This document shows, one piece after another, positions 2 through 11,135 of a DNA stretch of 11,135 nt. Numbering within the stretch: the stretch's first letter is position 1; every line of letters starts with the position of its first letter. The notes beneath the pieces were generated by a model. It was not told the DNA's origin and made no database searches. It saw nothing but the letters and a program-made list of their open reading frames with translations. Source of the stretch: Gammaproteobacteria bacterium (GTDB lineage Bacteria > Pseudomonadota > Gammaproteobacteria > Burkholderiales > Thiobacillaceae). The stretch spans positions 1 through 11,135 of the forward strand of contig JAHJNP010000020.1 of NCBI GenBank assembly GCA_018820745.1, read 5' to 3'. Both the position numbers and the translations under genes were made by a program.

Positions 2-382
2 AACTGCGCCGAAGTCGCGATCAAGGACGTCGGCATCATCGGCGTCGATTCCGGCTGGGAAATCTACGTCGCCGGCAACGGCGGCATCAAGACCGAGGTC
101 GCGCAGTTCCTGGTCAAGGTCAAAACCCCCGACGAGGTGATCGAGTATTCAGGCGCCTTCCTGCAGCTGTACCGCGAGGAAGCGCGCTACCTCGACCGCA
201 CCGTGCACTACGTCGCGCGCGTCGGCCTCGACTACGTGAAGAAGAAAATCCTCGACGACGCCGACAACCGGCGCGCGCTGTACGAGCGCCTGCTGTTCGC
301 GCTGTCGGTCGAACGCGACCCGTGGCTCGAGCGCGCCAGGGAAGGCAAGCTCAAGCATGAATTCGAAACCGTCGCCGCCTGA
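2..382 (+). CDS. nirB: Nitrite reductase large subunit, C-terminal part (5' cut by window edge)
   Basis: This is the last 126 codons of the siroheme-containing large subunit of assimilatory NAD(P)H nitrite reductase, which reduces nitrite to ammonium in the cytoplasm. The reading frame is open from the window edge. It starts with N-C-A-E, which fits the final cysteine of the second C-x3-C siroheme/4Fe-4S motif, and continues with the conserved stretch DVGIIGVDSGWEIYVAGNGG. The tail (YREEARYLDRTVHYVARVGL) is typical of the NirB C-terminus. The stop is TGA at 380-382, and nirD follows after 11 bases, so the two are surely co-transcribed. The N-terminal FAD/NADH and BFD-like [2Fe-2S] domains lie outside the window. 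The identification rests on recognised family sequence plus the adjacent nirD. Confidence 0.93.
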   Translation, partial: NCAEVAIKDVGIIGVDSGWEIYVAGNGGIKTEVAQFLVKVKTPDEVIEYSGAFLQLYREEARYLDRTVHYVARVGLDYVKKKILDDADNRRALYERLLFALSVERDPWLERAREGKLKHEFETVAA

Positions 383-393
383 AGGAAGACACC

Positions 394-741
394 ATGAACC
401 CAACTGATCTGAACCCGTGGGTCGCCATTCTCGACGTGGGCGACATCCCCAAACTCGGCGCCCGCGTGGTGCGTCACGGCAGCCTCGACATTGCCGTGTT
501 CCGCACCGCGGACGACGAAATATTCGCGCTGGAAGACCGCTGCCCGCACAAGGGTGGGCCGTTGTCGCAGGGCATCGTGCACGGCAGGAAAGTCGCCTGC
601 CCGATGCACAACTGGAACATCGAACTCGATTCCGGCTGCGCGGTGGCGCCCGACCAGGGCTGCGCACGCGAGTTTCCGGTCAAGGTCGAAGACGGCCGCG
701 TGTGGCTGGATTTCGCCACCGTCGAGCCCGCCGCCGCCTGA
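394..741 (+). CDS. nirD: Nitrite reductase small subunit, Rieske-type
   Basis: This 115-residue protein is the small subunit partner of NirB in cytoplasmic assimilatory nitrite reductase. It is a single Rieske-like domain and retains both cluster-ligand motifs, C-P-H-K-G-G near residue 50 and C-P-M-H-N-W near residue 69, so it could bind a [2Fe-2S] centre; many enterobacterial NirD proteins have lost these ligands. Its length is normal for the family. The start ATG is preceded by GGAAG (384-388), which overlaps the region just after the nirB stop. The 11-base gap to nirB indicates one operon. No convincing terminator follows; a five-pair hairpin (751-768) has no T-run. The next thing downstream is the broken kinase remnant, a gene type often found beside nirBD in betaproteobacteria. 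Confidence 0.93.
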   Translation: MNPTDLNPWVAILDVGDIPKLGARVVRHGSLDIAVFRTADDEIFALEDRCPHKGGPLSQGIVHGRKVACPMHNWNIELDSGCAVAPDQGCAREFPVKVEDGRVWLDFATVEPAAA

Positions 742-1373: not shown

Positions 1374-2465
1374 GTGAACCAACAAGTCCGCTTCTGCACA
1401 AGCCCAGACGGCGCACGGATTGCTTATGCCACGACGGGCAGCGGCCCTCCGCTGGTCATGTCAGCCACCTGGCTGACGCACCTGCAGCAGCAGTGGCACA
1501 GCCTGGCGTGGCGCCCCTGGCTGGAAGCCCTCTCTAAAACGCACACCCTTCTCCGGTACGACCCTCGCGGTTGCGGTCTGTCCGAGCGCCATGCGACCGA
1601 TATTTCGTTTGAAACCTGGATCAGCGATTTCGAGGCGGTTATCGACGCGGCCGGCTTCGATCGTTTCCCCGTACTCGGGGTGTGTCAGGGCGGACCGATC
1701 GCCGTCGAGTACACGGCCCGCCACCCCGAGCGCGTCAACCAGCTGGTTTTGTATGGAACCTACGCCCGCGGGAGGAGCAAGCGAGCAGGCTCGCCTCACG
1801 AGGCGGAAAAAGCCCAGGTTCTGCTGGACCTGACCAAGCTTGGATGGGGAAAAGAGAACCACGCCTTTGTCCAGGTCTGGGCATCGCAGTTTCAACCCGG
1901 AGGCAGCCTGGACCATTTGCAGTCCTGGTCCGCATTGCAAAACGCGAGTACCTCGGCTGAAACGGCCGCCCAATTGATGCGCGTGACCTTCGATATCGAT
2001 GTACAAGCGGCAGCCCGGCGCGTCCGCTGCCCAACGCTGATTATCCACCCGGCCCATGGCGCTGTCGTTCCCATAGAAGAGGCACGCATACTCGGCGGCC
2101 TCATCGAGGATTCCCGTTTTGTCGAACTCGACACGGTCAATCATATGCCGCTGGCCAATGAGCCTGCCTGGCAACAGCTGCTGGATGAATTGCAGAAGTT
2201 TCTGTCTCGCGACCGGCCAGAACCCGATAGGGAAGCACTCGCGAAACGCCTGACCGAACTGACCAGACGGGAACATGAAGTCCTGAATGAGATTGCCCAG
2301 GGACTGGACAATGCTCAAATCGCGGTCCGTCTGGCGCTTGCAGAAAAAACCGTGCGCAACCACATCACCAACGTGTTCGACAAGATCGGCGTCGACAACC
2401 GCTACCAGGCAATCGTGCTGGCCCGTGAGGCCGGGCTGGGACAGCCACAGCAATTTACGTCCTAG
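1374..2465 (+). CDS. LuxR-family regulator with N-terminal alpha/beta-hydrolase-fold domain
   Basis: This is a 363-residue cytoplasmic protein. Residues about 5-275 form an alpha/beta-hydrolase fold, and residues about 293-356 form a LuxR/GerE DNA-binding domain (LTRREHEVLNEIAQGLDN, then EKTVRNHITNVFDKIGV). The nucleophile elbow reads G-V-C-Q-G, so Cys104 replaces the usual Ser. The strand where the catalytic Asp is expected reads HPAHGAVVP, with Gly229 at that place. His257 (in VNH) is kept. Catalysis is therefore doubtful, and I infer a ligand-binding sensor that controls transcription. The start is GTG 1374, because no in-frame ATG lies nearby; AAGG at 1361 is a modest ribosome site. A strong terminator follows, so it is monocistronic. 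The two secreted hydrolases just downstream are the obvious candidate targets. No signal peptide is seen. Confidence 0.88.
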   Translation: MNQQVRFCTSPDGARIAYATTGSGPPLVMSATWLTHLQQQWHSLAWRPWLEALSKTHTLLRYDPRGCGLSERHATDISFETWISDFEAVIDAAGFDRFPVLGVCQGGPIAVEYTARHPERVNQLVLYGTYARGRSKRAGSPHEAEKAQVLLDLTKLGWGKENHAFVQVWASQFQPGGSLDHLQSWSALQNASTSAETAAQLMRVTFDIDVQAAARRVRCPTLIIHPAHGAVVPIEEARILGGLIEDSRFVELDTVNHMPLANEPAWQQLLDELQKFLSRDRPEPDREALAKRLTELTRREHEVLNEIAQGLDNAQIAVRLALAEKTVRNHITNVFDKIGVDNRYQAIVLAREAGLGQPQQFTS

Positions 2466-2492
2466 CTTTCCCGGGCGTCTGAAAGGCTTGCT

Positions 2493-2516
2493 AACCGGGA
2501 CCACTGTCCCGGTTTT
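2493..2516 (+). terminator. Rho-independent terminator after the LuxR-type regulator
   Basis: There is a perfect nine-pair stem (AACCGGGAC with GTCCCGGTT) around a four-base loop (CACT), ending in a TTTT run. It lies 28 bases after the regulator stop codon and should separate that gene from the hydrolase pair. Confidence 0.85.
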
Positions 2517-2582
2517 GCCAACATAAAAATTCCCGTATCAAGGACATTCGCCTCAAGACGCATCTGCCTGGCTGGCGTACTT

Positions 2583-2599
2583 TTGGCATGTCAGGCCAA
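2583..2599. promoter_or_regulatory. 17-bp dyad, candidate operator of the hydrolase pair
   Basis: TTGGCATGTCAGGCCAA is symmetric at seven of the eight positions per half (TTGGCnTGnCAnGCCAA). It sits 57 bases before the first hydrolase ATG and downstream of the regulator's terminator. Its size suits a dimeric LuxR-type helix-turn-helix protein. That the neighbouring regulator binds it is an inference. No matching copy is seen before the regulator itself. Confidence 0.45.
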
Positions 2600-2656
2600 T
2601 TGAAAGGCAATCCGCACGACACGCCTCCCTAACCTGCTTACCCAGGAGAAGTCATC

Positions 2657-3562
2657 ATGAAACGCTTGCTCATTATTCTCTTCGCAAGTTTCTGTCTCAG
2701 CCCCCATCTGGGGCTTGCGGCGGTGCCGCCCGACCTGCCACCGGACGTCAAAACACTGCGCGTCAACGGCTACGACATGGCGTATACGGAACAGGGCAGT
2801 GGCCCCCCGCTCGTTCTGGTTCATGGCTCGCTAAGCGATTACCGAACCTGGGCGCCCGTGCTGGCCGACCTCGCCACCGAAAATCGGGTCATCGCCGTGA
2901 GCCTCCGGCACTACTACCCTGAACGCTGGGATGGAAAAGGCAGCGATTTGTCGCTCAGCGAACACGCAAAAGATGTCTCGTCCTTCATCGAAGCACTGGG
3001 TGCCGGCCCGGTCCATCTATTAGGCCACTCACGCGGTGCCGGGGTTGCGCTATTGGCGGCCTCCATGCACCCGGAACGGATTCGCAGCCTGATACTGGCT
3101 GATCTCTACCCGTTCAAGTCCTTGCTGCCGAACACAGGCGCCGTCAGGGCAGAGATGGAAAAACGGAAGGCCGTATCGCGCGCCGTGCTGGCCCACTATG
3201 AGCGGAATGATCCGGAAGCCGGCCTCATTGCTTACGTCAACCATATCGTCGGCCCGAATGGGTGGGATCGCACCGGCGAAGCCCCGCGCGAGCGCCTGCG
3301 CTCGAACACCTGGACGCTGCTGAGCTTGCTCGCCGACCCGGAAACGCCATTGAAGTGTGCCGCGCTTTCCAGGGTAATCGCGCCGGTACTGATGGTGACC
3401 GGCGACCGCAGCCCCCCGATATTTGCTTACTCGAACGATGCCGCGAAAGCCTGCCTCCCGAATGTGGACAAGGCGACGATCCCGGATGCCGGGCACATGA
3501 TGTTTCAGGCCAATCCGGCGGCCTTCGCTGTTGAAGTGCAATTCTTTGTCGCGGATCACTAG
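2657..3562 (+). CDS. Exported alpha/beta hydrolase, paralogue 1
   Basis: This 301-residue protein is an alpha/beta-hydrolase-fold enzyme of unknown substrate. It starts with a Sec-type signal peptide (MKRLLIILFASFCLSPHLGLA, likely cut near residue 21-23), which places it in the periplasm. The fold landmarks are all present: oxyanion HG at 56-57, nucleophile Ser125 in G-H-S-R-G, likely acid Asp250 in TGDRSP, and His280 in DAGHMM. It should be an active esterase or lipase-like enzyme; family membership does not reveal the substrate. AGGAG lies just before ATG 2657 (2643-2647). It is followed after 66 bases by a paralogue in the same direction, so the two probably form an operon. The two share aligned segments such as VNGYDMAYTEQGSGPP and VNDVSLPYVEQGQGAP, which suggests tandem duplication. 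Confidence 0.9.
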   Translation: MKRLLIILFASFCLSPHLGLAAVPPDLPPDVKTLRVNGYDMAYTEQGSGPPLVLVHGSLSDYRTWAPVLADLATENRVIAVSLRHYYPERWDGKGSDLSLSEHAKDVSSFIEALGAGPVHLLGHSRGAGVALLAASMHPERIRSLILADLYPFKSLLPNTGAVRAEMEKRKAVSRAVLAHYERNDPEAGLIAYVNHIVGPNGWDRTGEAPRERLRSNTWTLLSLLADPETPLKCAALSRVIAPVLMVTGDRSPPIFAYSNDAAKACLPNVDKATIPDAGHMMFQANPAAFAVEVQFFVADH

Positions 3563-3628
3563 GGGCGGGAGGCTGTTGGACAAAGCGTTCGCCCGTTTCT
3601 TTTTCAATCCTCTTGTTCGGAGGTCATG

Positions 3629-4537
3629 ATGAAAAACCTATTTCTGAAATCAGGCTTGATGGCCCTGTTGTTTGCAGGCTTTCAAAGCGCTTCCCAAGGC
3701 GATGCCGATGCCCCGGTTGCCAAGCAGATGACGGTCAACGACGTCAGCTTGCCGTATGTCGAGCAAGGCCAGGGCGCGCCCGTTGTCTTCGTGCACGGTG
3801 CATTCTCCGATCTGCGCGCATGGGAGCCACAACGCGAAGCCGTCGCACGACGTTTCCGCTTCATTGCCTATACCCAACGCTACTTCGGTACTGATCCCTG
3901 GCCCGACAAGGGCGAGCAATACTCCCAGGTGACGCATGCAGCAGACCTTGCGGCATTCATTCGGCAGCTCAATGTGGGTCCGGTATATCTCGTCGGACGT
4001 TCTTACGGCGGTACCGTTGCGGTCAGGGTGGCACTTCAACATCCCGAGTTGGTGCGTGCCGTTTTTGTGCAAGAGCCCACTATCGCAGCAGCGGCTGTGG
4101 CCGATCCGGATGTTCAGGGGATCCTCAAGAAGGAAAGGGGCGGTATGGCTTCGGCACGTGAAGTAGCGAAAGCGGGGAAAGCGGACGAGGCGACGCGCCT
4201 GTTCGCCGACTGGACAAACGGCCAACCCGGGGGGTTCGATGCGCTGCCGCCCGAAACGCGGTCCATGCACCTCGACAACGGCCGCACCGTCGCCCTGCAT
4301 TTCGCCGCCGCGCCGCCACCCAAGATCTCATGCGCCGACCTTGGACAAATGAAGAGGCCTCTGGCAATCACCCACGGCGAACTCACGCGACCCTTCTTCA
4401 AAATCCTGGCGGAGACTGCTCACAACTGTGTCCCCGGCTCTCAACTCATACCGATTCCGGGTGCACGGCACGCAGCGACATCCCAGAATCCGGCAGCATT
4501 CAACAATGCGTTGCTGACGTTCCTGGCAAGTCACTGA
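3629..4537 (+). CDS. Exported alpha/beta hydrolase, paralogue 2
   Basis: This 302-residue protein is a diverged tandem copy of the preceding hydrolase. An N-terminal hydrophobic segment (KNLFLKSGLMALLFAGFQSA) acts as a likely Sec signal peptide. The nucleophile is Ser125 in G-R-S-Y-G and the histidine is His281 in GARHAA. The acid position appears to be Glu251 (THGELT), where paralogue 1 has Asp250. Two ATGs lie side by side at 3626 and 3629; GGAGG (3619-3623) has a five-base spacing to 3629 but only two bases to 3626, so I chose 3629. The intergenic stretch (3563-3628) holds an imperfect hairpin and a T-rich run, which could reduce read-through from paralogue 1. The substrate is unknown. Different catalytic surroundings in the two copies suggest different substrates rather than simple dosage. 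Confidence 0.88.
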   Translation: MKNLFLKSGLMALLFAGFQSASQGDADAPVAKQMTVNDVSLPYVEQGQGAPVVFVHGAFSDLRAWEPQREAVARRFRFIAYTQRYFGTDPWPDKGEQYSQVTHAADLAAFIRQLNVGPVYLVGRSYGGTVAVRVALQHPELVRAVFVQEPTIAAAAVADPDVQGILKKERGGMASAREVAKAGKADEATRLFADWTNGQPGGFDALPPETRSMHLDNGRTVALHFAAAPPPKISCADLGQMKRPLAITHGELTRPFFKILAETAHNCVPGSQLIPIPGARHAATSQNPAAFNNALLTFLASH

Positions 4538-4717: not shown

Positions 4718-5614
4718 TCAAACCCCGTGCTTCCTGAACCACTCGGCCATCCGCTTCCAGCCGTCCTCGGCAGGCGCCTTGCGGTAGCTGGGCCGGTAAT
4801 CGGCGTGGAAGGCGTGGGGCGCGTCTGGATAGACATGGATGGACGACGCCTTGCTGGCAGGGTTGGCGGATTTCGCCAGGGTCGCCTGCATCTTCTTCAC
4901 GGTGTCCAGCGGAATGCCCGGGTCCTGGCCGCCGTAGAGACCGAGAATGGGCCCGTTCAGCTTGCCGGCGAGGTCCAGGGGATGCTTGGGCGTCAATTCG
5001 CTCGTCGCGCTGGTCAGGCGTCCGTACCAGGCCACGCCGGCCTTCACGCCGGGATGGTGGGCAGCGTACAGCCAGACGATGCGCCCGCCCCAGCAGAAGC
5101 CGGTGATGCCCAGCCGCGTGGTGTCGCCGCCGTGGGACTTGGCCCAGGCCACGCAGGCGTCGAGGTCGGCCATGACCTGGCTGTCCGGCACCTTCGACAC
5201 CACCTTGGCGATGAGTTCGGCGGTGTCGCTGTACTGTCGTGGGTCGCCCTGGCGCGCATACAGCTCGGGGGCGATGGCCTGGTAGCCCAGCTTGGCCAGG
5301 CGGCGGCAGACGTCCTTGATGTATTCGTGCACGCCGAAGACTTCCTGCACCACCAGGATGACCGGGAAGTTGTTGCCCTGCGCGGGCTGGGCCCGGTAGG
5401 CGGGCATGTTGCCGTCGGGGGTGGGCACCTGGATTTCCCCGGCCGTGAGGCCTGTGCTGTCGGTGCTGATGGCGGTCTGGGCCATCACCGGCTGCACGGC
5501 GAGGGCAAAGCCCGCGCCCAGGGCGGTGACCAAAAAGCCGCGCCGGGTGAGGGGCTGGGGCGGGGGAACCAGGCTGTCCAATTCTGCGGTCAGCGCGTCG
5601 GTGTCGGCGTTCAT
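4718..5614 (-). CDS. Tat-exported dienelactone hydrolase family protein
   Basis: This 298-residue protein belongs to the dienelactone hydrolase (DLH) family. Known members open lactones such as dienelactone in chloroaromatic breakdown; many homologues have unknown substrates. The catalytic Cys174 is in G-F-C-W-G-G, Asp231 in GGQD and His267 in PDAPHAF. Glu91 in VVQEVFG matches the family's conserved active-site Glu. Residues 23-46 (LTRRGFL plus a hydrophobic stretch ending in MAQ) form a twin-arginine signal, so the protein should be exported folded. The start is ATG 5614, with GGAG five bases upstream; the open frame extends to 5830 but that part overlaps the pagL-like gene and has no family similarity. 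It lies 85 bases after the pagL-like gene on the same strand, so co-transcription is likely. Confidence 0.9.
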   Translation of the reverse strand: MNADTDALTAELDSLVPPPQPLTRRGFLVTALGAGFALAVQPVMAQTAISTDSTGLTAGEIQVPTPDGNMPAYRAQPAQGNNFPVILVVQEVFGVHEYIKDVCRRLAKLGYQAIAPELYARQGDPRQYSDTAELIAKVVSKVPDSQVMADLDACVAWAKSHGGDTTRLGITGFCWGGRIVWLYAAHHPGVKAGVAWYGRLTSATSELTPKHPLDLAGKLNGPILGLYGGQDPGIPLDTVKKMQATLAKSANPASKASSIHVYPDAPHAFHADYRPSYRKAPAEDGWKRMAEWFRKHGV

Positions 5615-5699
5615 GGGATCTCCTTCGGGGGTGGTGGGATGGCCGGGATAGGGGGCTCGACGGCCACGGGGCAGGCGCCGCTCCCTGCTGCGGGGGCGG

Positions 5700-6272
5700 T
5701 TAAAAATTCGCGCCAAGCACGATCTGGTGGAGGTCGATGCCGTCGTTCGGCTTCTCGGTGTCGGCGTTGGAATAGTGGGAATACTGCAGGCCGGCGAATC
5801 CCCGCTTGGCAAACTCGACGCCCACGGCAAGGTGCTGGGAGAACTGGAAGCGGGTGGAAAAATCCTTGCCGCCCAGCGTGTCGCGGCTGAACAGCGAGAC
5901 GCCGAGCCCGGCTTCGGCGTAGGGCCGCAAGCGGGCCTCGCCGTAGTGGAGGAGGAGGCGGCCGATGCCGCCGAACTGGTTCAGGCTGTCCGGCCCGGGG
6001 CCCGCGCCGGTGTACCTGAAGTGGCTCAATTCCAGTTCGGGGCGCAGCGAGGCCTTCCAGTTGCCCCAGTCGGCGGACCACATCGGACCGAAGCGCAGGC
6101 TGAGCCCGGCCCGCTCGTAGTCGCCCCCCGCTTCGCCGACCACGAGGGCGATTCCCGGCCCCTCCGCTGCAGCCGAGGCGGTGCCGAACGGCGTGAAGGT
6201 GAATGCCAGGAGGGCGAACGCTGCAGGCAGGCTGAAGCCGGGTTGCAGCAAAACGACTTGATAGCGGTCCAT
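5700..6272 (-). CDS. pagL: PagL-like lipid A 3-O-deacylase (acyloxyacyl hydrolase family)
   Basis: This 190-residue protein is a predicted outer-membrane beta-barrel. Known PagL enzymes remove the 3-O-linked acyl chain from lipid A. The family signature is clear near the C-terminus: GLQYSHYSNADTEKPNDGID, with His166 and Ser168 as the expected catalytic pair. Asp180 sits where PagL has its catalytic Glu, so the triad acid may be substituted. Earlier segments alternate polar and hydrophobic residues as barrel strands do, and the chain ends in Phe, as outer-membrane proteins typically do. The signal peptide runs to about residue 34 (TASA). ATG 6272 has GGGGAG seven bases upstream. It is the first gene of a probable two-gene unit with the Tat-exported DLH protein. 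The gene symbol is given by family similarity; activity is not proven. Confidence 0.85.
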   Translation of the reverse strand: MDRYQVVLLQPGFSLPAAFALLAFTFTPFGTASAAAEGPGIALVVGEAGGDYERAGLSLRFGPMWSADWGNWKASLRPELELSHFRYTGAGPGPDSLNQFGGIGRLLLHYGEARLRPYAEAGLGVSLFSRDTLGGKDFSTRFQFSQHLAVGVEFAKRGFAGLQYSHYSNADTEKPNDGIDLHQIVLGANF

Positions 6273-6300
6273 GAGCTGTCTCCCCTTTGATTGGTCCTGG

Positions 6301-6333
6301 TGATCCGGCGCTGATCAGGCGCTGATCGGACGC
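6301..6333. repeat. Three tandem 11-bp repeats upstream of pagL-like gene
   Basis: There are three consecutive units: TGATCCGGCGC, TGATCAGGCGC and TGATCGGACGC. The period of exactly 11 bases keeps each copy on the same face of the helix. It lies 29-61 bases before the pagL-like start codon and on the leader side of the candidate -10 element. It could bind a regulator; no family can be named. Confidence 0.6.
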
Positions 6334-6339
6334 CCTCAA

Positions 6340-6497
6340 TCACCCCTCGATTCAGTATATGTACACATCGAACCGGAAGAGCGCGGTTGAGGCGGGGAAG
6401 GGCGGACTGGCCGGGCGACATGCAGCAGGATGCCGACGCGATGATTCCCGCGGCGGTGACCATCGGCACCACGATGTCGCCGCTTGAGCCGCGCGTA
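6340..6497. other. Intergenic stretch with no gene recognised
   Basis: Open frames exist on both strands but none resembles a known family or has a good ribosome site. The stretch forms the shared upstream region between the pagL-like gene (minus) and the haemoglobin gene (plus). A degenerate NtrC-like box, GCAC then seven bases then TCGC, lies at 6466-6480, exactly 32 bases upstream of the good box at 6498. Confidence 0.5.
6354..6359 (-). promoter_or_regulatory. Candidate -10 element for the pagL-like gene
   Basis: Read on the minus strand the hexamer is TATACT, one base from the sigma-70 consensus, 82 bases before the ATG. The -35 region at 16-17 bases is poor (CTCTTC or GCTCTT), so this is tentative and may need an activator. 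Confidence 0.3.
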
Positions 6498-6512
6498 GCA
6501 CTTGGTTGGTGC
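6498..6512. promoter_or_regulatory. NtrC-type binding site (enhancer)
   Basis: GCACTTGGTTGGTGC fits the known NtrC box, GCAC, seven bases, GTGC. Its centre is about 86 bases before the start expected from the sigma-54 promoter, a normal distance for an enhancer. A degenerate second copy lies 32 bases upstream, the same spacing as the two strong NtrC sites of the enteric glnA enhancer. Confidence 0.65.
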
Positions 6513-6564
6513 GCCCGCTTCCCTGCTCAGACCTCTCCCCGGCGTGTTTGCGAACGATGGCGGT

Positions 6565-6580
6565 TGGCACGCTCTCTGCT
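6565..6580 (+). promoter_or_regulatory. Sigma-54 promoter of the haemoglobin transcript
   Basis: TGGCACGCTCTCTGCT matches the sigma-54 consensus TGGCACG-N4-TTGCW with one mismatch. The invariant GG (6566-6567) and GC (6578-6579) are separated by exactly ten bases. Transcription would start near 6590. Together with the NtrC box it predicts control by nitrogen status. Confidence 0.75.
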
Positions 6581-6591
6581 TAGTGATGGGG

Positions 6592-6639
6592 GCCTGGCCT
6601 GTGCAGCGTTGCCCGGGTCAGGCAAGGACAACGGTGTCC
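6592..6639 (+). promoter_or_regulatory. Dual-hexaloop leader RNA (ANTAR/NasT-type antitermination target)
   Basis: Starting within a few bases of the predicted transcript start, two hairpins follow each other with a two-base linker. Hairpin 1 pairs 6592-6604 with 6611-6623 (two G-U pairs, one mismatch) and closes a six-base loop AGCGUU. Hairpin 2 pairs GGAC (6626-6629) with GUCC (6636-6639) around a six-base loop AACGGU. Both loops have A at position 1 and G at position 4, the signature known for RNAs bound by ANTAR-domain proteins such as NasR and NasT. The second hairpin shares bases with the terminator that follows, so the two structures exclude each other. The pairings were worked out by hand. 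A NasT/NasS pair is not in this window. Confidence 0.8.
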
Positions 6640-6671
6640 CTCGGCGTCATGCGCCAGGGCACCGTTTTTTT
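6630..6671 (+). terminator. Intrinsic terminator in the haemoglobin leader (attenuator)
   Basis: AACGGTG pairs with CACCGTT, then CCC with GGG and GGCG with CGCC around a TCATG loop, with two single-base bulges. The T-run is seven or more bases (6665-6671). No gene ends just upstream, so it must act on the leader transcript. Its left arm overlaps the 3' half of leader hairpin 2. Confidence 0.88.
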
Positions 6672-6780
6672 GATTTCCAGGCAGGAGCGATGGACCGGTC
6701 AATCCCCCTTGACGCGCCCAATGTGATCGGGCTGCTGTCGATTACATTATTTTCACCACCACGCAGAAAGGAAATGCCCC

Positions 6781-7194
6781 ATGACACCGCAACAAATCAC
6801 ACTTATCCAGACCAGCTGGGCCGCGGTCCTGCCCATTCAGGACACCGCCGCCGGGCTGTTCTACCAACGCCTGTTCGTGCTCGACCCGTCGGTGCGGCCC
6901 ATGTTCAAGGGCGACCTTGCCGCGCAGGGCAAAAAGCTCATGCAGGCCCTGGGATTCATCGTCAACAGCCTGACCCGGCTCGACGAACTGGTGCCGGTCG
7001 CGCAGGACATGGCGCGCAGGCACGTCGGCTATGGCGTCCAGGCCGAGCACTACGATACCGTCGGCACGGCATTGCTGTGGACGCTGGAGCAGGGATTGGG
7101 CTCGGCGTTTACCGACGAAACGCGCGATGCCTGGGCGATGGCCTACGGCACCCTGGCGGGGGTCATGAAGGAGGCCGCCTATGCGCCGGCCTGA
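6781..7194 (+). CDS. Single-domain bacterial haemoglobin (Vitreoscilla type)
   Basis: This 137-residue protein is one globin domain without a flavin reductase domain. The heme landmarks are visible: Tyr28 at B10 (LFYQRLF), Gln49 at E7 (LAAQGKKL) and proximal His81 at F8 (ARRHVGYGV), the same set as Vitreoscilla haemoglobin and flavohaemoglobins. Such proteins bind oxygen and nitric oxide; dioxygenase activity on NO would need a separate reductase. Start ATG 6781 has AAAGGAA seven bases upstream (6767-6773); ATG 6774 is out of frame. The regulatory region (NtrC box, sigma-54 promoter, dual-hexaloop leader, terminator) implies induction under nitrogen limitation with nitrate or nitrite. A protective role against NO made during nitrite assimilation is an inference. 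The downstream neighbour is convergent, so it is monocistronic. Confidence 0.92.
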   Translation: MTPQQITLIQTSWAAVLPIQDTAAGLFYQRLFVLDPSVRPMFKGDLAAQGKKLMQALGFIVNSLTRLDELVPVAQDMARRHVGYGVQAEHYDTVGTALLWTLEQGLGSAFTDETRDAWAMAYGTLAGVMKEAAYAPA

Positions 7195-7221
7195 TGGGGG
7201 AAACGGCGCGTAAACACTGAT

Positions 7222-7277
7222 TCAGCATGCGATCGCCCGGCTGCACGTTGGTGTGCAGCCGGGCGATCGCATGCTGA
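7222..7277. repeat. Perfect 25-bp inverted repeat with 6-base loop
   Basis: Bases 7222-7246 are the exact reverse complement of 7253-7277, with GTTGGT between. The arms contain GCATGC and GCGATCGC. It lies between the convergent haemoglobin and minE genes. No T-run follows on either strand, so it is not a standard intrinsic terminator, though such a stem could block or protect both transcripts. It has no mobile-element genes around it. Confidence 0.9.
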
Positions 7278-7327
7278 CGAAGCCATGCCGGGCGGGCAAG
7301 CCGGAGGAAAACGGAAGGGTGCGCCGG

Positions 7328-7582
7328 TCAGCGCATTTCAGGCAGCACGATGTTGACTTCGATTACCTCGAAATTCCCCTGCTTTTCCAGCCCGACCTTG
7401 ATGTCTTCCGGGTTGATCTTGACGTATTTCGAGATCACCGCGACCAGATCCTTTTGCAGATCGGGCAGGAAATCCGGGCCGGACAGGCCCACGCGCTCGC
7501 GCGCGATGATGAGTTGCAGGCGCTCTTTGGCGACCGAGGCGGTGGCTTTCTTTTCGCCGAAAATGTGGGAGAGCCAGGACAT
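7328..7582 (-). CDS. minE: Cell division topological specificity factor MinE
   Basis: This 84-residue protein drives MinD off the membrane and creates the pole-to-pole oscillation that places the division septum at mid-cell. The N-terminus [12 protein letters not shown] is the membrane-binding segment. [10 protein letters not shown] (21-30) is the MinD-contacting region, and residues 40-84 form the dimeric topological specificity domain. Its length is normal. The start at 7582 has GGAGG within the end of minD. An open frame continues upstream to 7678 but lies inside minD. It is the last gene of the minCDE operon, one base after minD. Confidence 0.97.
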
Positions 7583-7583
7583 A

Positions 7584-8399
7584 TTACTTGCCTCCGAACA
7601 GGCGCTTGAGCAGGCCCGGTTTTTCATGGTCGACGAAGCGCAGCGGGTGCGTTTCGCCGAGGAAGCGGCCGATCGCATCCAGGTAGGCGTCGGCCACCGG
7701 GGTGTCTTTCTGGTGGATCGCGGGGACGCCCTGGTTGGAAGCGTGCAGCACCGCTTCTGATTCGGGGATGACGCCTAGGAGCGGAATCCGCAGCAGTTCC
7801 TGGATGTCGGTATAGGTCAGCATTTCGCCTTCGTGCGCGCGCTTCGGCGAATAGCGGGTGACCAGCAGGTGTTCCTTCACCGGCTCGCGGCCTTCGATGG
7901 CGCGGCGGCTTTTCGACTGGATGATGCCGAGGATGCGGTCGGAGTCGCGCACCGAGGAGACTTCCGGGTTGGTGACGACGATGGCCTCGTCGGCGAAGGT
8001 CAGCGCCATCACGGCGCCGTGCTCGATGCCGGCGGGCGAGTCGCAGACGATGTAGTCGAAGCCCTGGTGCTCGAGTTCCTTCAGGATCTTCTCCACGCCC
8101 TCCTCGGTGAGCGCATCCTTGTCGCGCGTCTGCGAGGCGGGCAGCACGAACAGGTTGTCGCAATTCTTGTCCTTGATCAGCGCCTGGTGCAGGTTGGCGT
8201 CGCCCTGGATGACGTTGACGAAGTCGTACACCACGCGGCGCTCGCAGCCCATGATGAGGTCGAGGTTGCGCAGGCCGACGTCGAAGTCGATGACGGCGGT
8301 CTTGAAGCCGCGCATGGCGAGACCGCTGGCGATCGAGGCGCTGGTGGTGGTTTTGCCAACGCCGCCCTTGCCCGAGGTGATGGTGATGATGGTGGCCAC
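7584..8399 (-). CDS. minD: Septum site-determining ATPase MinD
   Basis: This 271-residue membrane-cycling ATPase recruits MinC to the membrane and is displaced by MinE. The deviant Walker A motif [10 protein letters not shown] (residues 9-18) holds the signature Lys11. The switch region DSPAGIE is present. The C-terminal amphipathic membrane-targeting helix is [10 protein letters not shown]. Length and order (minC, minD, minE) are standard. A purine-rich ribosome site (AAAGGAAG, 8405-8412) precedes ATG 8399. Spacing is 24 bases from minC and one base to minE, so this is a single operon. Confidence 0.97.
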
Positions 8400-8423
8400 A
8401 GAGCTTCCTTTTTTACGTGGAGA

Positions 8424-9182
8424 TTAGAGAGGTTCGATGACGATCTGGCTGGCGTCGGCCAGGCGGATTTGCGCCGGCTTCTTCGCCACGGCGGCATCCA
8501 GTGCCGTGTCGAAGGTGCGATATACGCCCGCGATCGAAACCAGTTCGGCTTCGAGGTGGGTGGTGAAAATACGTGCCGTGACATCGCCGCGCGCGCCCGC
8601 AAGCGCCCGCCCCTTGAGCGGCGCATACACATGGATGCTGCCGTCGGCGATGACTTCCGCGCCGGGGTTGACCGCCGCCAGCACCACGATGTCGCCGCCC
8701 GCCGCATACACCCGCTGGCCCGAGCGCAGCGGCTTGTCGATGATGCGGGTGGGGACGGTGTTACCCGCAGCTATTTGCGGCGCGGGCGCTGCTGCCGGTT
8801 CGGGTAGGGGTTCCGGTTCGGGCGCAGCCTCGGCCGCCATCGGCGCAGGCGCGGCGGCGTTCAGCACCAGCAGCCCCGCCTGCACCGCGGCGGCGGCCAG
8901 TTCGTTTGATGCGTTTTGCACCGCGAACGGATTCAGTCCGCGGCTTTTCAGTTCCTGCACCAGCCAGGCCCAGTCGGGCGCGGCCGCGTCGGCCGGCAGC
9001 CGGCCGCACTCGAACACCGCCGCCTCGCCGCCGAAAAAATCCGGCGTCGCGGCAAACAGCGTGCTGATGTGGGTGTCCAGCGCGGCGGGTTCGGCGCTGT
9101 TGAGGATGATCTGTATCCCGGCGAGCCGCGTGGTCTTCAGTTCCAGCGCGGGCGTGGGGCGGGGCTCACGTCGGCGCGGCAT
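8424..9182 (-). CDS. minC: Septum site-determining inhibitor MinC
   Basis: This 252-residue protein inhibits FtsZ polymerisation away from mid-cell when bound to MinD. Residues about 12-106 form the FtsZ-inhibiting N-domain (ELKTTRLAGIQIILN). Residues 108-140 are an Ala/Pro/Glu-rich linker, as is common in betaproteobacteria. Residues 145-250 form the beta-helical C-domain that dimerises and binds MinD (GAEVIADGSIHVYAPLKGRALAGARGD). No good ribosome site precedes ATG 9182, and the short basic N-terminal stretch (PRRREPRPT) is unusual, so the start is less sure than the rest. It is the first gene of the min operon. Its promoter must lie in 9183-9386, where I could not pick a convincing -35/-10 pair. 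Confidence 0.94.
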   Translation of the reverse strand: MPRRREPRPTPALELKTTRLAGIQIILNSAEPAALDTHISTLFAATPDFFGGEAAVFECGRLPADAAAPDWAWLVQELKSRGLNPFAVQNASNELAAAAVQAGLLVLNAAAPAPMAAEAAPEPEPLPEPAAAPAPQIAAGNTVPTRIIDKPLRSGQRVYAAGGDIVVLAAVNPGAEVIADGSIHVYAPLKGRALAGARGDVTARIFTTHLEAELVSIAGVYRTFDTALDAAVAKKPAQIRLADASQIVIEPL

Positions 9183-9247
9183 GGCGGGAAAATTGGGGTG
9201 AATTCACGGACAGGTACATCGTAGGCAACCTCGAGAGTCTAGCCGTA

Positions 9248-9287
9248 CCTGCAACACGGGGCAACCGCGCAATGCCGGTGTTGCAGG
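9248..9287. repeat. Inverted repeat between the ABC ATPase and minC
   Basis: CCTGCAACAC (9248-9257) pairs exactly with GTGTTGCAGG (9278-9287), and GGCA/TGCC extends the stem inside. It lies 99 bases beyond the ATPase stop on the minus strand and upstream of minC. No T-run follows, so it may be a transcript end or a site in the min promoter region. The rest of 9183-9386 shows nothing clear. Confidence 0.6.
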
Positions 9288-9386
9288 ATGCGACCGGAAA
9301 TTCTCCGCGCAGCTGCCCTGATCGCACATCGCCAGCGCAGCCACGGGGTTTGGCCGGGGCGGCAGGCGGGTTTTCGCCGGGCGCTG

Positions 9387-10244
9387 TCAGGCTTGTTTTG
9401 CGAGGGGCACCTTGGTCGGCGTTGCGGCCTCCGGCGCCTTTTTCTGCGCGCCAATGTCCTCCACCTTGCGCTGGCGTTCATAGAGGAAAGCCAGCACTTC
9501 CTTTCGGAAGTGGTTGTAGCGGGCGTCGCCGGCCAGCTCCACGCGTTTGCGCGGCCGCGCCAGGTCGATCTGCAAAATCTCGCCGATGGTGGCGGCCGGC
9601 CCGTTGGTCATCATGACGATGCGGTCCGACAGCAGTACCGCCTCGTCGACGTCGTGGGTGATCATGATCACCGTGTTGCCGAGGTCGGCGTGGATCTCCA
9701 TCAGGGAATCCTGCAGATGGGCGCGGGTCAGGGCGTCGAGTGCGCCAAAGGGCTCGTCCATCAGCAGGACTTTCGGTTCCATGGCCAGCGCCCGGGCAAT
9801 CCCGACCCGCTGCTTCATGCCGCCGGAGATTTCGTCCGGGCGCTTGTCCATGGCGTGGGTCATGTGCACCAGTTCGAGGTTGTGGATGATCCAGTCGCGC
9901 ATCTCGGCCTTGCTCTTGGTGCGCCTGAACACCTGCTTGACCGCCAATTCGACGTTCTGATAGGCGGAGAGCCAGGGCAGCAGGGAGTGGTTCTGGAACA
10001 CCACGGCCCGTTCCGGGCCGGGAGCGTTCACCTCCCGGTCCTCGAGCAGCACGCCGCCCCCGGTGGCCAGATGCAGGCCGGCGACGATGTTCAGCACCGT
10101 GGACTTGCCGCAGCCGGAGTGGCCGATGAGGCTGACAAACTCGCCCTTGGCAATGTTCAGGTTCACCTTGTCCAGGGCGCGAAAAGGACCCTTGGGGGTG
10201 GGGAAGTCGATACAGACTTCGGAGAGTTGCAGATATTTGTTCAT
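9387..10244 (-). CDS. Nitrate/nitrite ABC transporter ATP-binding protein (NrtC/NrtD type)
   Basis: This 285-residue ATPase energises uptake through the adjacent permease. Walker A GHSGCGKST lies at 41-49, the Q-loop at Gln84, signature SGGMKQR at 140-146, Walker B VLLMDEP at 159-165 and the switch His at 197. The stretch VVFQNHSLLPWLSAYQNVELAV is typical of the nitrate/sulfonate/taurine (NrtD/SsuB/TauB) branch, and the NrtB-like permease next to it favours nitrate. The single nucleotide-binding domain, without a C-terminal solute-binding domain, is NrtD-like. The C-terminal tail (about 258-285) is Lys/Ala/Pro-rich and probably disordered. GGAG lies eight bases before ATG 10244, and the permease stop is 21 bases upstream, so they form an operon. 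Cyanate or sulfonate remain possible substrates. Confidence 0.88.
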   Translation of the reverse strand: MNKYLQLSEVCIDFPTPKGPFRALDKVNLNIAKGEFVSLIGHSGCGKSTVLNIVAGLHLATGGGVLLEDREVNAPGPERAVVFQNHSLLPWLSAYQNVELAVKQVFRRTKSKAEMRDWIIHNLELVHMTHAMDKRPDEISGGMKQRVGIARALAMEPKVLLMDEPFGALDALTRAHLQDSLMEIHADLGNTVIMITHDVDEAVLLSDRIVMMTNGPAATIGEILQIDLARPRKRVELAGDARYNHFRKEVLAFLYERQRKVEDIGAQKKAPEAATPTKVPLAKQA

Positions 10245-10265
10245 GGTTGGACTCCGGGTGGGCGC

Positions 10266-11135
10266 TTAGCGCAGGACTGCATGCTTGTCCCAGCTCACTT
10301 TTTGCTGCAGCAGCAACATGGCGCGGTCAAGCAGAAAACCGATGAGGCCGATCGCCAGCACGGCGACCATGATCCGGCCCAGGGAATTGGAACTGCCGTT
10401 CTGGAATTCGTCCCACACGAATTTCCCCAGTCCCGGGCTCTGCGCCAGCATCTCGGCGGCGATGAGCACCATCCAGGCGATGCCGAGCGACAGGCGCAGG
10501 CCGGTGAACATCAGCGGCAGGGAGGCGGGCACGATGATCTTGAATACGTGGGACAGGGCACCCAGCCGCAACACCTGGCTGACGTTGAGCAGGTCCTTGC
10601 TGACGTTGGCGACCCCCACGGCAGTATTGATCACTGTCGGCCACAGGCAGCACAGCAGCACCGTGAACATGGAGATCAGGAAGGATTTGGAAAAGGTGGG
10701 GTCCTGGCTCACGTACACCGCGCTCACCACCATGGTCACCAAAGGCAGCCAGGCCAAGGGCGACACCGGCTTGAACAGCTGGATCAGCGGGTTGACAGCG
10801 GCGTAGGCCGATTCGTTGAGGCCAATCAGGATGCCCAGTGGAATGGCAATCAGGGAAGCCAGGAAGAAGCCGGACAACACCGTGAACAGGCTGGTTCCGA
10901 TCTGATCCAGGAAAGTGGGCTTGCCGGTGTAGGGCCGGATTTCCACATGGGCCTGGGGGTTGGCCGCCAGGATCTGTGCATTGCGGGCTTCCTGGCGTGC
11001 GATGAAATCCTGTTTCCGCTGGCGTTCCTGCTGGTGTTCGGCGGCCAGATTGGTGGTTTGCTCCCACACCTGAACCGGGCCCGGGAATTGGCCCAGCGAG
11101 GTGTCGATCATCTTGGCGGCGTTGTACCAGAGGAA
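10266..11135 (-). CDS. nrtB: Nitrate/nitrite ABC transporter permease (5' end outside window)
   Basis: This is the inner-membrane permease of an NrtABCD-type transporter. The frame is open to the window edge: eight codons (FLWYNAAK) precede Met at 11111 and look like the end of the first membrane segment, so that Met is probably not the start. The visible 289 residues include a charged, Gln-rich periplasmic segment (QERQRKQDFIARQEARNAQ) and then five or so membrane helices. The cytoplasmic ATPase-coupling loop is around LRLGALSHVFKIIVPASLPLMFTGLRLS. The segment FKPVSPLAWLPL is characteristic of the NrtB family. The ATPase follows after 21 bases. The substrate-binding NrtA and the promoter are expected to the right of the window. 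Confidence 0.87.
   Translation of the reverse strand, partial: FLWYNAAKMIDTSLGQFPGPVQVWEQTTNLAAEHQQERQRKQDFIARQEARNAQILAANPQAHVEIRPYTGKPTFLDQIGTSLFTVLSGFFLASLIAIPLGILIGLNESAYAAVNPLIQLFKPVSPLAWLPLVTMVVSAVYVSQDPTFSKSFLISMFTVLLCCLWPTVINTAVGVANVSKDLLNVSQVLRLGALSHVFKIIVPASLPLMFTGLRLSLGIAWMVLIAAEMLAQSPGLGKFVWDEFQNGSSNSLGRIMVAVLAIGLIGFLLDRAMLLLQQKVSWDKHAVLR

What the first reader, a model, noticed from the sequence alone, without database searches (positions are those of the whole stretch)
6592..6671. Bacterial haemoglobin gene behind an ANTAR-type dual-hexaloop attenuator
Two successive hairpins have loops AGCGUU and AACGGU, both fitting A1-x-x-G4-x-x, and the second is mutually exclusive with a seven-U intrinsic terminator. 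This architecture is established for NasR/NasT control of nitrate and nitrite assimilation operons. Finding it directly before a single-domain globin suggests the globin is a member of the nitrate-assimilation regulon, made only when nitrate or nitrite is sensed. That would give a concrete physiological setting for a Vitreoscilla-type haemoglobin.
Basis: partly seen in the sequence, partly recalled or inferred. Interest (0 to 1): 0.82.

Follow-up and report, generated by a model that had tools for sequence, protein, structure and literature searches.

The report
Nitrate-switch RNA before a bacterial globin
In a Thiobacillus-like bacterium, an RNA switch of the kind that turns nitrate-use genes on sits directly in front of a small haemoglobin gene, apparently because about 4.2 kb of an operon between the two was lost, which ties this haemoglobin to nitrate assimilation.

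Summary
Window 6592-6671 carries two hairpins with loops AGCGUU and AACGGU (both A1..G4); the second is mutually exclusive with a 15-pair terminator ending in U7. Upstream lie a sigma-54-like promoter and an NtrC-like palindrome. The draft genome has one ANTAR hit, a NasT-type protein, on a contig that relatives place next to the window. The exact P2 motif occurs three times in the genome: before the globin and before two nrtA-like genes. The window starts in nirB-nirD and ends in nrtD-nrtB.

New here: in six related genomes the same leader heads a five-gene operon (NirB-like flavoprotein, decahaem cytochrome, Tll0287-like protein, cytochrome c, globin). Relative G093 is collinear with the window but holds 4,214 bp more, exactly between leader and globin, so the window looks like a deletion fusion. 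L048 has a different junction. Elsewhere the globin lies inside nrtA-globin-nrtB units. The globin is closer to Hell's Gate globins than to Vitreoscilla's.

NasT control of a globin is prior art (Bradyrhizobium Bjgb). Nitrate response and NasT binding remain untested.

The parts
2..382 (+). 3' end of nirB (assimilatory nitrite reductase large subunit, TIGR02374 positions 679-790)
394..741 (+). nirD (TIGR02378, over cut-off)
6498..6512 (.). NtrC-like palindrome GCACT-N5-GGTGC (consensus recalled)
   Evidence: the only GCACY-N5-RGTGC in the window; same place in G093; 32 of 34 leaders scored have a site of 9/12 or better
6565..6579 (+). sigma-54-like promoter TGGCACG-N4-CTGC (consensus recalled)
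   Evidence: sequence; (26 exact matches in the genome, 11 for the reversed control pattern); similar sites by eye before the two nrtA-like leaders and nasT
6592..6623 (+). antiterminator hairpin P1, hexaloop 6605-6610 AGCGUU
6626..6639 (+). antiterminator hairpin P2, hexaloop 6630-6635 AACGGU
6630..6671 (+). intrinsic terminator, alternative to P2, with T7 at 6665-6671
6690..6729 (+). residual 5' end of the lost flavoprotein gene ('fadox'): ATG with AGGAG at 6683-6687; its frame now runs out of frame across the globin to 7220
6729..6731 (.). deletion junction: 4,214 bp of relative G093 are absent here
6731..6784 (+). residual 3' end of the lost cytochrome c gene (AAVDYIIFTTTQKGNAP-stop), overlapping the globin start as ATGA
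6781..7194 (+). single-domain globin, 137 aa, Hell's Gate globin-like
9387..10244 (-). nrtD, nitrate ABC transporter ATPase (TIGR01184, over cut-off)
10266..11111 (-). nrtB-like nitrate ABC permease, N-terminus probably on contig C376 (TIGR01183 160 bits, below cut-off 209)

Best explanation
The segment is a NasT-type transcription attenuator. Sigma-54 polymerase, probably activated by NtrC under nitrogen limitation, starts near 6590. Without nitrate or nitrite the transcript folds into the terminator and stops at the U-run. When nitrate or nitrite is sensed, NasT binds the P1/P2 hexaloops; P2 withholds the terminator's 5' arm and the globin is transcribed. The leader belonged to a five-gene operon (NirB-like flavoprotein, decahaem cytochrome, Tll0287-like haem protein, cytochrome c, globin); deletion of about 4.2 kb removed the first four genes and left leader and globin. 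The globin probably removes nitric oxide made during nitrate and nitrite reduction, as reported for Bradyrhizobium Bjgb. Shown here: architecture, motif sharing inside the genome, the regulator gene, synteny and the missing 4.2 kb. Inferred: direction of the change, NasT binding, nitrate response, NtrC control and globin activity.
For: Dual hexaloops plus exclusive terminator. P1 over seven leaders (window and six relatives): 5 of 11 pairs with changes on both sides, reached by 7 of 500 shuffles; 81% of cells of the P1+P2 structure paired against 35-57% when slid. Exact motif GGACAANGGYGTCC three times in the own genome, before the globin and two nrtA-like genes; the P11 model ranks the same three places first. 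NasT-type protein, the only ANTAR hit, on a contig collinear with the window's end in relatives. Deletion: window 6731-11135 is 92.9% identical to G093 C13 6535-10955, and window 6551-6729 is 90% identical to 2141-2320. Eight of 56 genus genomes match the leader query: six carry the decahaem gene, while the window's genome and G089 (= L048 by contig coordinates), with leader directly before globin, have no hit. Globin context in 80 loci: 31 after the flavoprotein/cytochrome genes, 14 after an nrtA-like gene, 4 after nasT, 5 after an ABC ATPase gene, 3 with the leader directly before it, 1 with only the Tll0287-like gene at a contig end, 22 none of these.
Against: No expression or binding data. 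Own nirB leader has a sigma-54-like site but no P2 motif; nasT leader has a terminator but no P2. Of the two own nrtA-like leaders only one has a conforming P1. P11 match is below Rfam's gathering score. Model R1 does not find the two nrtA-like leaders above noise genome-wide. No cytosolic NasS was identified: the genome's three NMT1_2 hits all look exported by eye. Globin leaders L048, L058 and L078 lack a conforming P1 loop, and 22 of 80 globin loci show none of the nitrate-type contexts scored. The retained flavoprotein start codon could hinder globin translation. The junction is seen in one draft assembly only.
Confidence: 0.83

Rival explanations
1. The deletion has left a dying remnant: the leader still forms but the globin is poorly or not translated because ribosomes starting at the retained flavoprotein ATG run out of frame over it, and the unit is on the way to loss.
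For: AGGAG and ATG at 6683-6692 with an open frame to 7220; fragments of two lost genes remain; L053-L055 keep a sigma-54-like site but no visible attenuator (by eye).
Against: The globin frame is intact and 82-91% identical to globins of relatives with the full operon; an AAAGGA sits before its ATG; leader hairpins and terminator are intact; a second genome (L048) has leader plus globin with a different junction; in L078 (Parasulfuritortus) the leader stands 35 bases before the globin and no significant cytochrome c remnant was found.
Confidence: 0.12
2. The structure is a plain intrinsic terminator and promoter pair; the hexaloops are chance and the globin is controlled by sigma-54/NtrC alone.
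For: Sigma-54-like and NtrC-like sites are good; three other globin leaders lack a conforming P1; the antiterminator part alone is not unusually stable.
Against: 0 of 200 shuffles give the architecture; the motif is shared with nrtA-like leaders in the genome; A1/G4 loops in 17 of 35 leaders against 1.2 expected; P1 shows paired changes.
Confidence: 0.04
3. The leader-globin junction is a misassembly of a draft genome that really holds the whole operon.
For: 431 contigs, 75% complete; the continuous junction is seen in this one assembly only among 56 genus genomes.
Against: The junction lies inside an 11-kb contig whose flanks are 83-93% identical to G093 in the same order; the decahaem query has no hit in the assembly while it has strong hits in 7 other genus genomes; a different fusion exists in L048. 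Reads were not available.
Confidence: 0.08

Closest known systems
NasR-nasF leader of Klebsiella and the general ANTAR dual-hairpin antiterminator (PMC3369931, passages read)
   Same: Two hairpins with hexaloops, A at 1 and G at 4, upstream of and exclusive with an intrinsic terminator
   Different: Here the ANTAR protein is of NasT type (receiver+ANTAR), and the controlled gene is a globin
NasS-NasT control of nas genes, Paracoccus denitrificans (PMC3795266, passages read)
   Same: NasT-type ANTAR protein in a nitrate assimilation region; leader RNA with hairpins
   Different: No cytosolic NasS recognised here; the Paracoccus nasA leader was not compared by sequence
Bradyrhizobium narK-bjgb-flp-nasC (PMC4724949 and PMC6759348, passages read)
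   Same: Single-domain haemoglobin under NasT; NasT-type hairpins predicted for narK and bjgb leaders; Bjgb protects from NO
   Different: There the globin is inside a nitrate reductase operon with a flavoprotein partner, and under denitrifying conditions its expression rose in the nasT mutant; here it is alone behind its own leader
Rfam P11 RNA (RF00625), linked to the P. aeruginosa nitrogen assimilation operon (PMC12080996, passages read)
   Same: Model consensus shows, by eye, a sigma-54-like stretch, loops AUAGAA and AAAGGC (both A1..G4) and a terminator; best Rfam match of the window
   Different: Match is 32.1 bits against a cut-off of 70; P11 is treated in that paper as an sRNA
Hell's Gate globins of Methylacidiphilum infernorum (PDB 3s1i, 3ubc, 3wfw; organism name from recall and the listing)
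   Same: Best solved-structure relatives of the globin (E 3e-37 to 2e-44)
   Different: Two papers in the listing (PMC11203436, PMC4476040; search listing only) were not read for gene context

Membership tests
ANTAR-type dual-hexaloop attenuator (NasT/NasR leaders) | Two tandem hairpins with hexaloops, A1 and G4 in both | tested here: met
ANTAR-type dual-hexaloop attenuator (NasT/NasR leaders) | Second hairpin mutually exclusive with an intrinsic terminator before the first gene | tested here: met
ANTAR-type dual-hexaloop attenuator (NasT/NasR leaders) | Cognate ANTAR protein in the genome | tested here: met
   one hit, receiver+ANTAR; that it is the cognate protein is inferred
ANTAR-type dual-hexaloop attenuator (NasT/NasR leaders) | Same element before nitrate assimilation genes of the same genome | tested here: met
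   P2 and terminator before two nrtA-like genes, conforming P1 in one of the two; nirB no; nasA start not covered by the contigs read
ANTAR-type dual-hexaloop attenuator (NasT/NasR leaders) | Binding by the ANTAR protein and nitrate-dependent read-through | not testable with these tools
   needs experiment
Rfam RF00625 (P11) | Score at or above the gathering cut-off of 70 bits | tested here: not met
   32.1 bits
NasS-NasT two-component regulator | Receiver+ANTAR protein without histidine kinase partner | tested here: inconclusive
   receiver+ANTAR shown; kinase absence not tested
NasS-NasT two-component regulator | Cytosolic nitrate-binding NasS | tested here: inconclusive
   three NMT1_2 hits, all with signal-like N-termini by eye; genome 75% complete
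Single-domain globin | Globin domain alone, no reductase domain | tested here: met
   137 aa, PF00042 residues 27-129
   1vhb E 6e-21 against Hell's Gate globins E 3e-37 to 2e-44

The most novel reading that the evidence does not exclude
The five-gene unit from which this globin came (NirB-like flavoprotein with a membrane tail of about five helices, decahaem cytochrome, Tll0287-like haem protein, cytochrome c, globin) is an undescribed, NasT-controlled NADH-to-periplasm electron conduit for nitrogen oxyanions or NO, found in Proteobacteria, Planctomycetes and Verrucomicrobia, and its globin is a separable NO-handling module that lineages have kept alone, under the nitrate switch, after losing the rest.
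Probability: 0.3. Interest if true: 0.75.

Novelty: new variant of a known kind. Interest (0 to 1): 0.56.

Why it matters
It gives a testable physiological setting for Hell's Gate-type globins: they recur next to or inside nitrate assimilation units. It documents how an RNA switch can be handed to a new first gene by a single deletion, with a collinear intact relative for comparison. It also points to a multihaem operon, placed under a nitrate-type leader in Thiobacillus relatives, for which the paper searches made here found no description.

Tried and rejected
Leader capture by insertion (my first idea, note) was dropped when the same leader was found at the head of the complete operon in relatives and G093 proved collinear. 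The idea that the decahaem operon replaces NirB was dropped: six of the seven genus genomes with a strong decahaem hit also have NirB over the cut-off; the seventh, G076, is 70% complete. Vitreoscilla-type naming was dropped. Model R1 failed to find the two nrtA-like leaders above noise genome-wide. The decahaem protein had only two weak matches to solved structures and sub-cut-off matches to decahaem families. Three paper searches for the operon listed no paper that I recognised as describing it; those searches, of one open-licence library, are the whole basis for calling it undescribed. Searches for NasT leaders with globins led only to the Bradyrhizobium papers. In one search greedy ORF picking missed or mislabelled genes in GC-rich loci, so tblastn annotation replaced it. 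The first automatic leader scan of the 80 loci was too strict and found little; the P2-based scan replaced it. A first energy script used P1 coordinates one base off and was redone. The promoter pattern inside the script had a wrong spacer and matched nothing; it was not used.

Full report
WHAT IS THERE. The window (contig C227 of a 2.5-Mb, 431-contig, 75% complete draft genome) belongs to a Thiobacillus-like betaproteobacterium: the nearest named globin loci are Thiobacillus bins. P1 pairs 6592-6604 with 6611-6623 (12 of 13 positions) around AGCGUU. P2 pairs 6626-6629 with 6636-6639 around AACGGU. The terminator uses all six P2 loop bases and three of its 3' stem bases, forms 15 pairs and ends in U7. 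P1+P2 is worth -27.0 and P1+terminator -46.3 kcal/mol. The whole leader is unusually stable (0 of 200 shuffles); the antiterminator part alone is not (20 of 200). The architecture appears once on the + strand, not on the - strand, and 0 times in 200 dinucleotide-shuffled windows.

PROMOTER. TGGCACG-N4-CTGC at 6565-6579 fits the sigma-54 consensus (recalled) and would start transcription about 6590. The pattern TGGCACG-N4-NTGC is common in the genome (26 exact matches; 11 for the reversed control), so alone it says little; its position does. GCACTTGGTTGGTGC at 6498-6512 fits an NtrC site (recalled consensus), is the only such palindrome in the window, and lies at the same place in G093. Of 34 leaders scored, 32 have a site of 9/12 or better between 260 and 55 bases upstream of P2, against 9.4% of mononucleotide shuffles (one of 35 sites was dropped for too little upstream DNA, and the 34 are related).

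SAME SWITCH IN THE SAME GENOME. The motif GGACAANGGYGTCC has three exact matches in the genome: the globin leader, C376:3663 and C376:5232 (five further places have one mismatch). The last two lie before two nrtA-like genes (NMT1_2), and both have a sigma-54-like site upstream and a T-run terminator downstream. The Rfam P11 model ranks these three places 1 to 3 genome-wide (32.1, 17.8, 16.1 bits; fourth 14.0), all below its cut-off of 70; nine of 14 control genomes also gave sub-cut-off hits at that loose threshold, so only the ranking counts. C376:3663 has a conforming P1 (AAUGAU), C376:5232 does not. Against this reading: the own nirB leader has a sigma-54-like site but a repeat-like palindrome instead of P2 (by eye); the nasT leader has a terminator but no P2; and my model R1 does not see the nrtA-like leaders above noise in the whole genome (E 3.15 for one, the other not listed), although in a smaller set of 26 sources it scores them at E 0.011 and 0.4.

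REGULATOR AND NEIGHBOURHOOD. One ANTAR protein was found; it has a receiver and an ANTAR domain, as NasT. No NasS was identified: the three NMT1_2 hits of the genome have signal-like N-termini by eye. The window starts with the 3' end of nirB and a whole nirD and ends in nrtD and nrtB. The window's right end and the reverse complement of C376 map to adjacent, slightly overlapping places in G093 and L045, and the end of C28 (nirB start; what looks by eye like a nasA end lies upstream) and the window's left end map to one nirB locus in L163 and in L164. So the globin most likely sits between nirBD and nrtDBA-nasT in one nitrate assimilation region; the joins are inferred from relatives.

ORIGIN BY DELETION. 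In L045, L050, L051 and L052 the start of P2 lies 59-91 bases before the matched start of a NirB-like flavoprotein gene, followed by a decahaem cytochrome, a Tll0287-like gene, a cytochrome c and the globin (L051 and L052 are near duplicates). L046 and L049 have the same operon and a leader whose P2 pattern has one changed base. By blastn, window 6555-6677 matches the L046 leader (76% of 123 bases, E 2.7e-17) and window 6730-6798 matches the cytochrome c end plus globin start. G093 is the clearest case: window 6731-11135 equals C13 6535-10955 at 92.9%, window 6383-6729 equals 1972-2320 at 83% (90% over 6551-6729), and the 4,214 bases between hold the four missing genes. Deletion in the window's lineage, rather than insertion in the others, follows from the gene fragments left in the window. 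The window also carries about 1.6 kb at 4771-6382 that G093 lacks there. Of 56 genus genomes, 8 match the leader query. Six (G033, G053, G058, G061, G080, G093) have the decahaem gene; the window's genome and G089 do not (where 9 of 56 genomes have any hit, two of them weak only). G089 is the source of L048 by contig coordinates; its leader also precedes the globin directly, with a longer cytochrome c remnant (tblastn E 1.5e-8) and a different junction, so the event probably happened twice. Incompleteness (75% and 86%) weakens the absences.

WIDER CONTEXT. The genome collection scan kept the best 80 of 312 globin relatives. Contexts: 31 after flavoprotein-decahaem-Tll genes, 14 directly after an nrtA-like gene (match end 26-47 bases before the globin), 4 after nasT, 5 after an ABC ATPase gene, 3 with the leader directly before the globin (L048, L058, L078), 1 with only the Tll gene at a contig end, 22 none of these; at least two of the 22 have little upstream DNA (L056, L089). 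nasT or an nrtA-like gene lies in the held flanks of 39 of 80, and a P2+T-run leader on the same strand within 5 kb upstream in 17 of 80. L051/L052 and L080/L081 look like near duplicates. In Parasulfuritortus cantonensis (L078) leader-globin is followed by leader-nirB (NirB confirmed). In the family sample, 21 of 61 genomes have a globin match, three of the matches being weak or partial; their upstream regions were read by eye.

STRUCTURE EVIDENCE. Over seven leaders of the flavoprotein-operon type (window included), P1 has changes on both sides in 5 of 11 pairs; 7 of 500 shuffles reach this for the P1+P2 structure, 12 of 500 the covariation score and 72 of 500 the number of pair types; 81.1% of cells pair against 35-57% when slid (the structure was taken from the window, which favours it). 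P2 and the terminator are nearly invariant and give no covariation. Over 35 distinct P2 sites, 17 have an A1/G4 hexaloop hairpin upstream (15 of 31 after redundancy removal), shuffle mean 1.2. Those 17 include the window and G093, which need one mismatch, and one (L078 8569) that lies on a sigma-54-like site and is probably chance; 18 do not conform, among them globin leaders L048, L058 and L078.

THE GLOBIN. 137 aa, Pfam globin, best solved-structure relatives Hell's Gate globins. Bradyrhizobium Bjgb, a single-domain haemoglobin encoded with nitrate assimilation genes, protects against NO, and its operon needs NasT for nitrate response (PMC4724949, passages); under denitrifying conditions its expression rose in a nasT mutant although NasT-type hairpins are predicted in the narK and bjgb leaders (PMC6759348, passages). 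NO detoxification is therefore the likeliest role here, by analogy only.

A COMPLICATION. The flavoprotein's ATG (6690) and AGGAG survive, and that frame runs 176 codons over the globin to 7220. The globin has its own AAAGGA and ATG. Expression may therefore be weaker than the intact leader suggests.

VERDICT. Observation confirmed; regulon interpretation well supported by comparison but untested by experiment; known kind of switch, known principle of globin control, new gene arrangement with a clear deletion origin.

Noticed in passing
L045, L050, L051, L052, L117 and others (31 of 80 loci): Operon of NirB-like flavoprotein with about five membrane helices (counted in L117), decahaem cytochrome (10 CXXCH in L045 and L117), Tll0287-like haem protein, cytochrome c and globin, present in Proteobacteria, Planctomycetes such as Rhodopirellula and a Verrucomicrobia bin, under a NasT-type leader in Thiobacillus relatives; function unknown.
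   Followed up: partly
Rfam RF00625 consensus as aligned: The Pseudomonas 'sRNA' P11 consensus shows, by eye, a sigma-54-like stretch, two A1..G4 hexaloops and a terminator, so it looks like a NasT attenuator leader; PMC12080996 (passages) calls P11 a regulator of the operon with NirB, NirD and NasC.
   Followed up: partly
window 7223-7276: 24-base inverted repeat with a 6-base loop between globin and minE (by eye), likely a bidirectional terminator; G093 has it too.
   Followed up: no
L002 2785-2916: nasT itself has a sigma-54-like site and a strong terminator before its start codon but no P2 motif, suggesting attenuation by another route.
   Followed up: no
L152 1905-2131: Own nirB leader: sigma-54-like site followed by a repeat-like palindrome (TCATTGCGAGCGAAGC type) where P2 would be expected.
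   Followed up: no
L078 7911-8640: In Parasulfuritortus cantonensis two leaders in tandem: one before the globin, one before nirB.
   Followed up: partly
L045 8474-9256 and L055 5011-5799: Proteasome-subunit-like protein gene convergent with the globin in several Thiobacillus relatives (L045, L050-L055); minE-minD-minC stand there in the window.
   Followed up: no
window 1374-4537: A LuxR-type regulator with an alpha/beta hydrolase domain followed by two further alpha/beta hydrolase genes.
   Followed up: no
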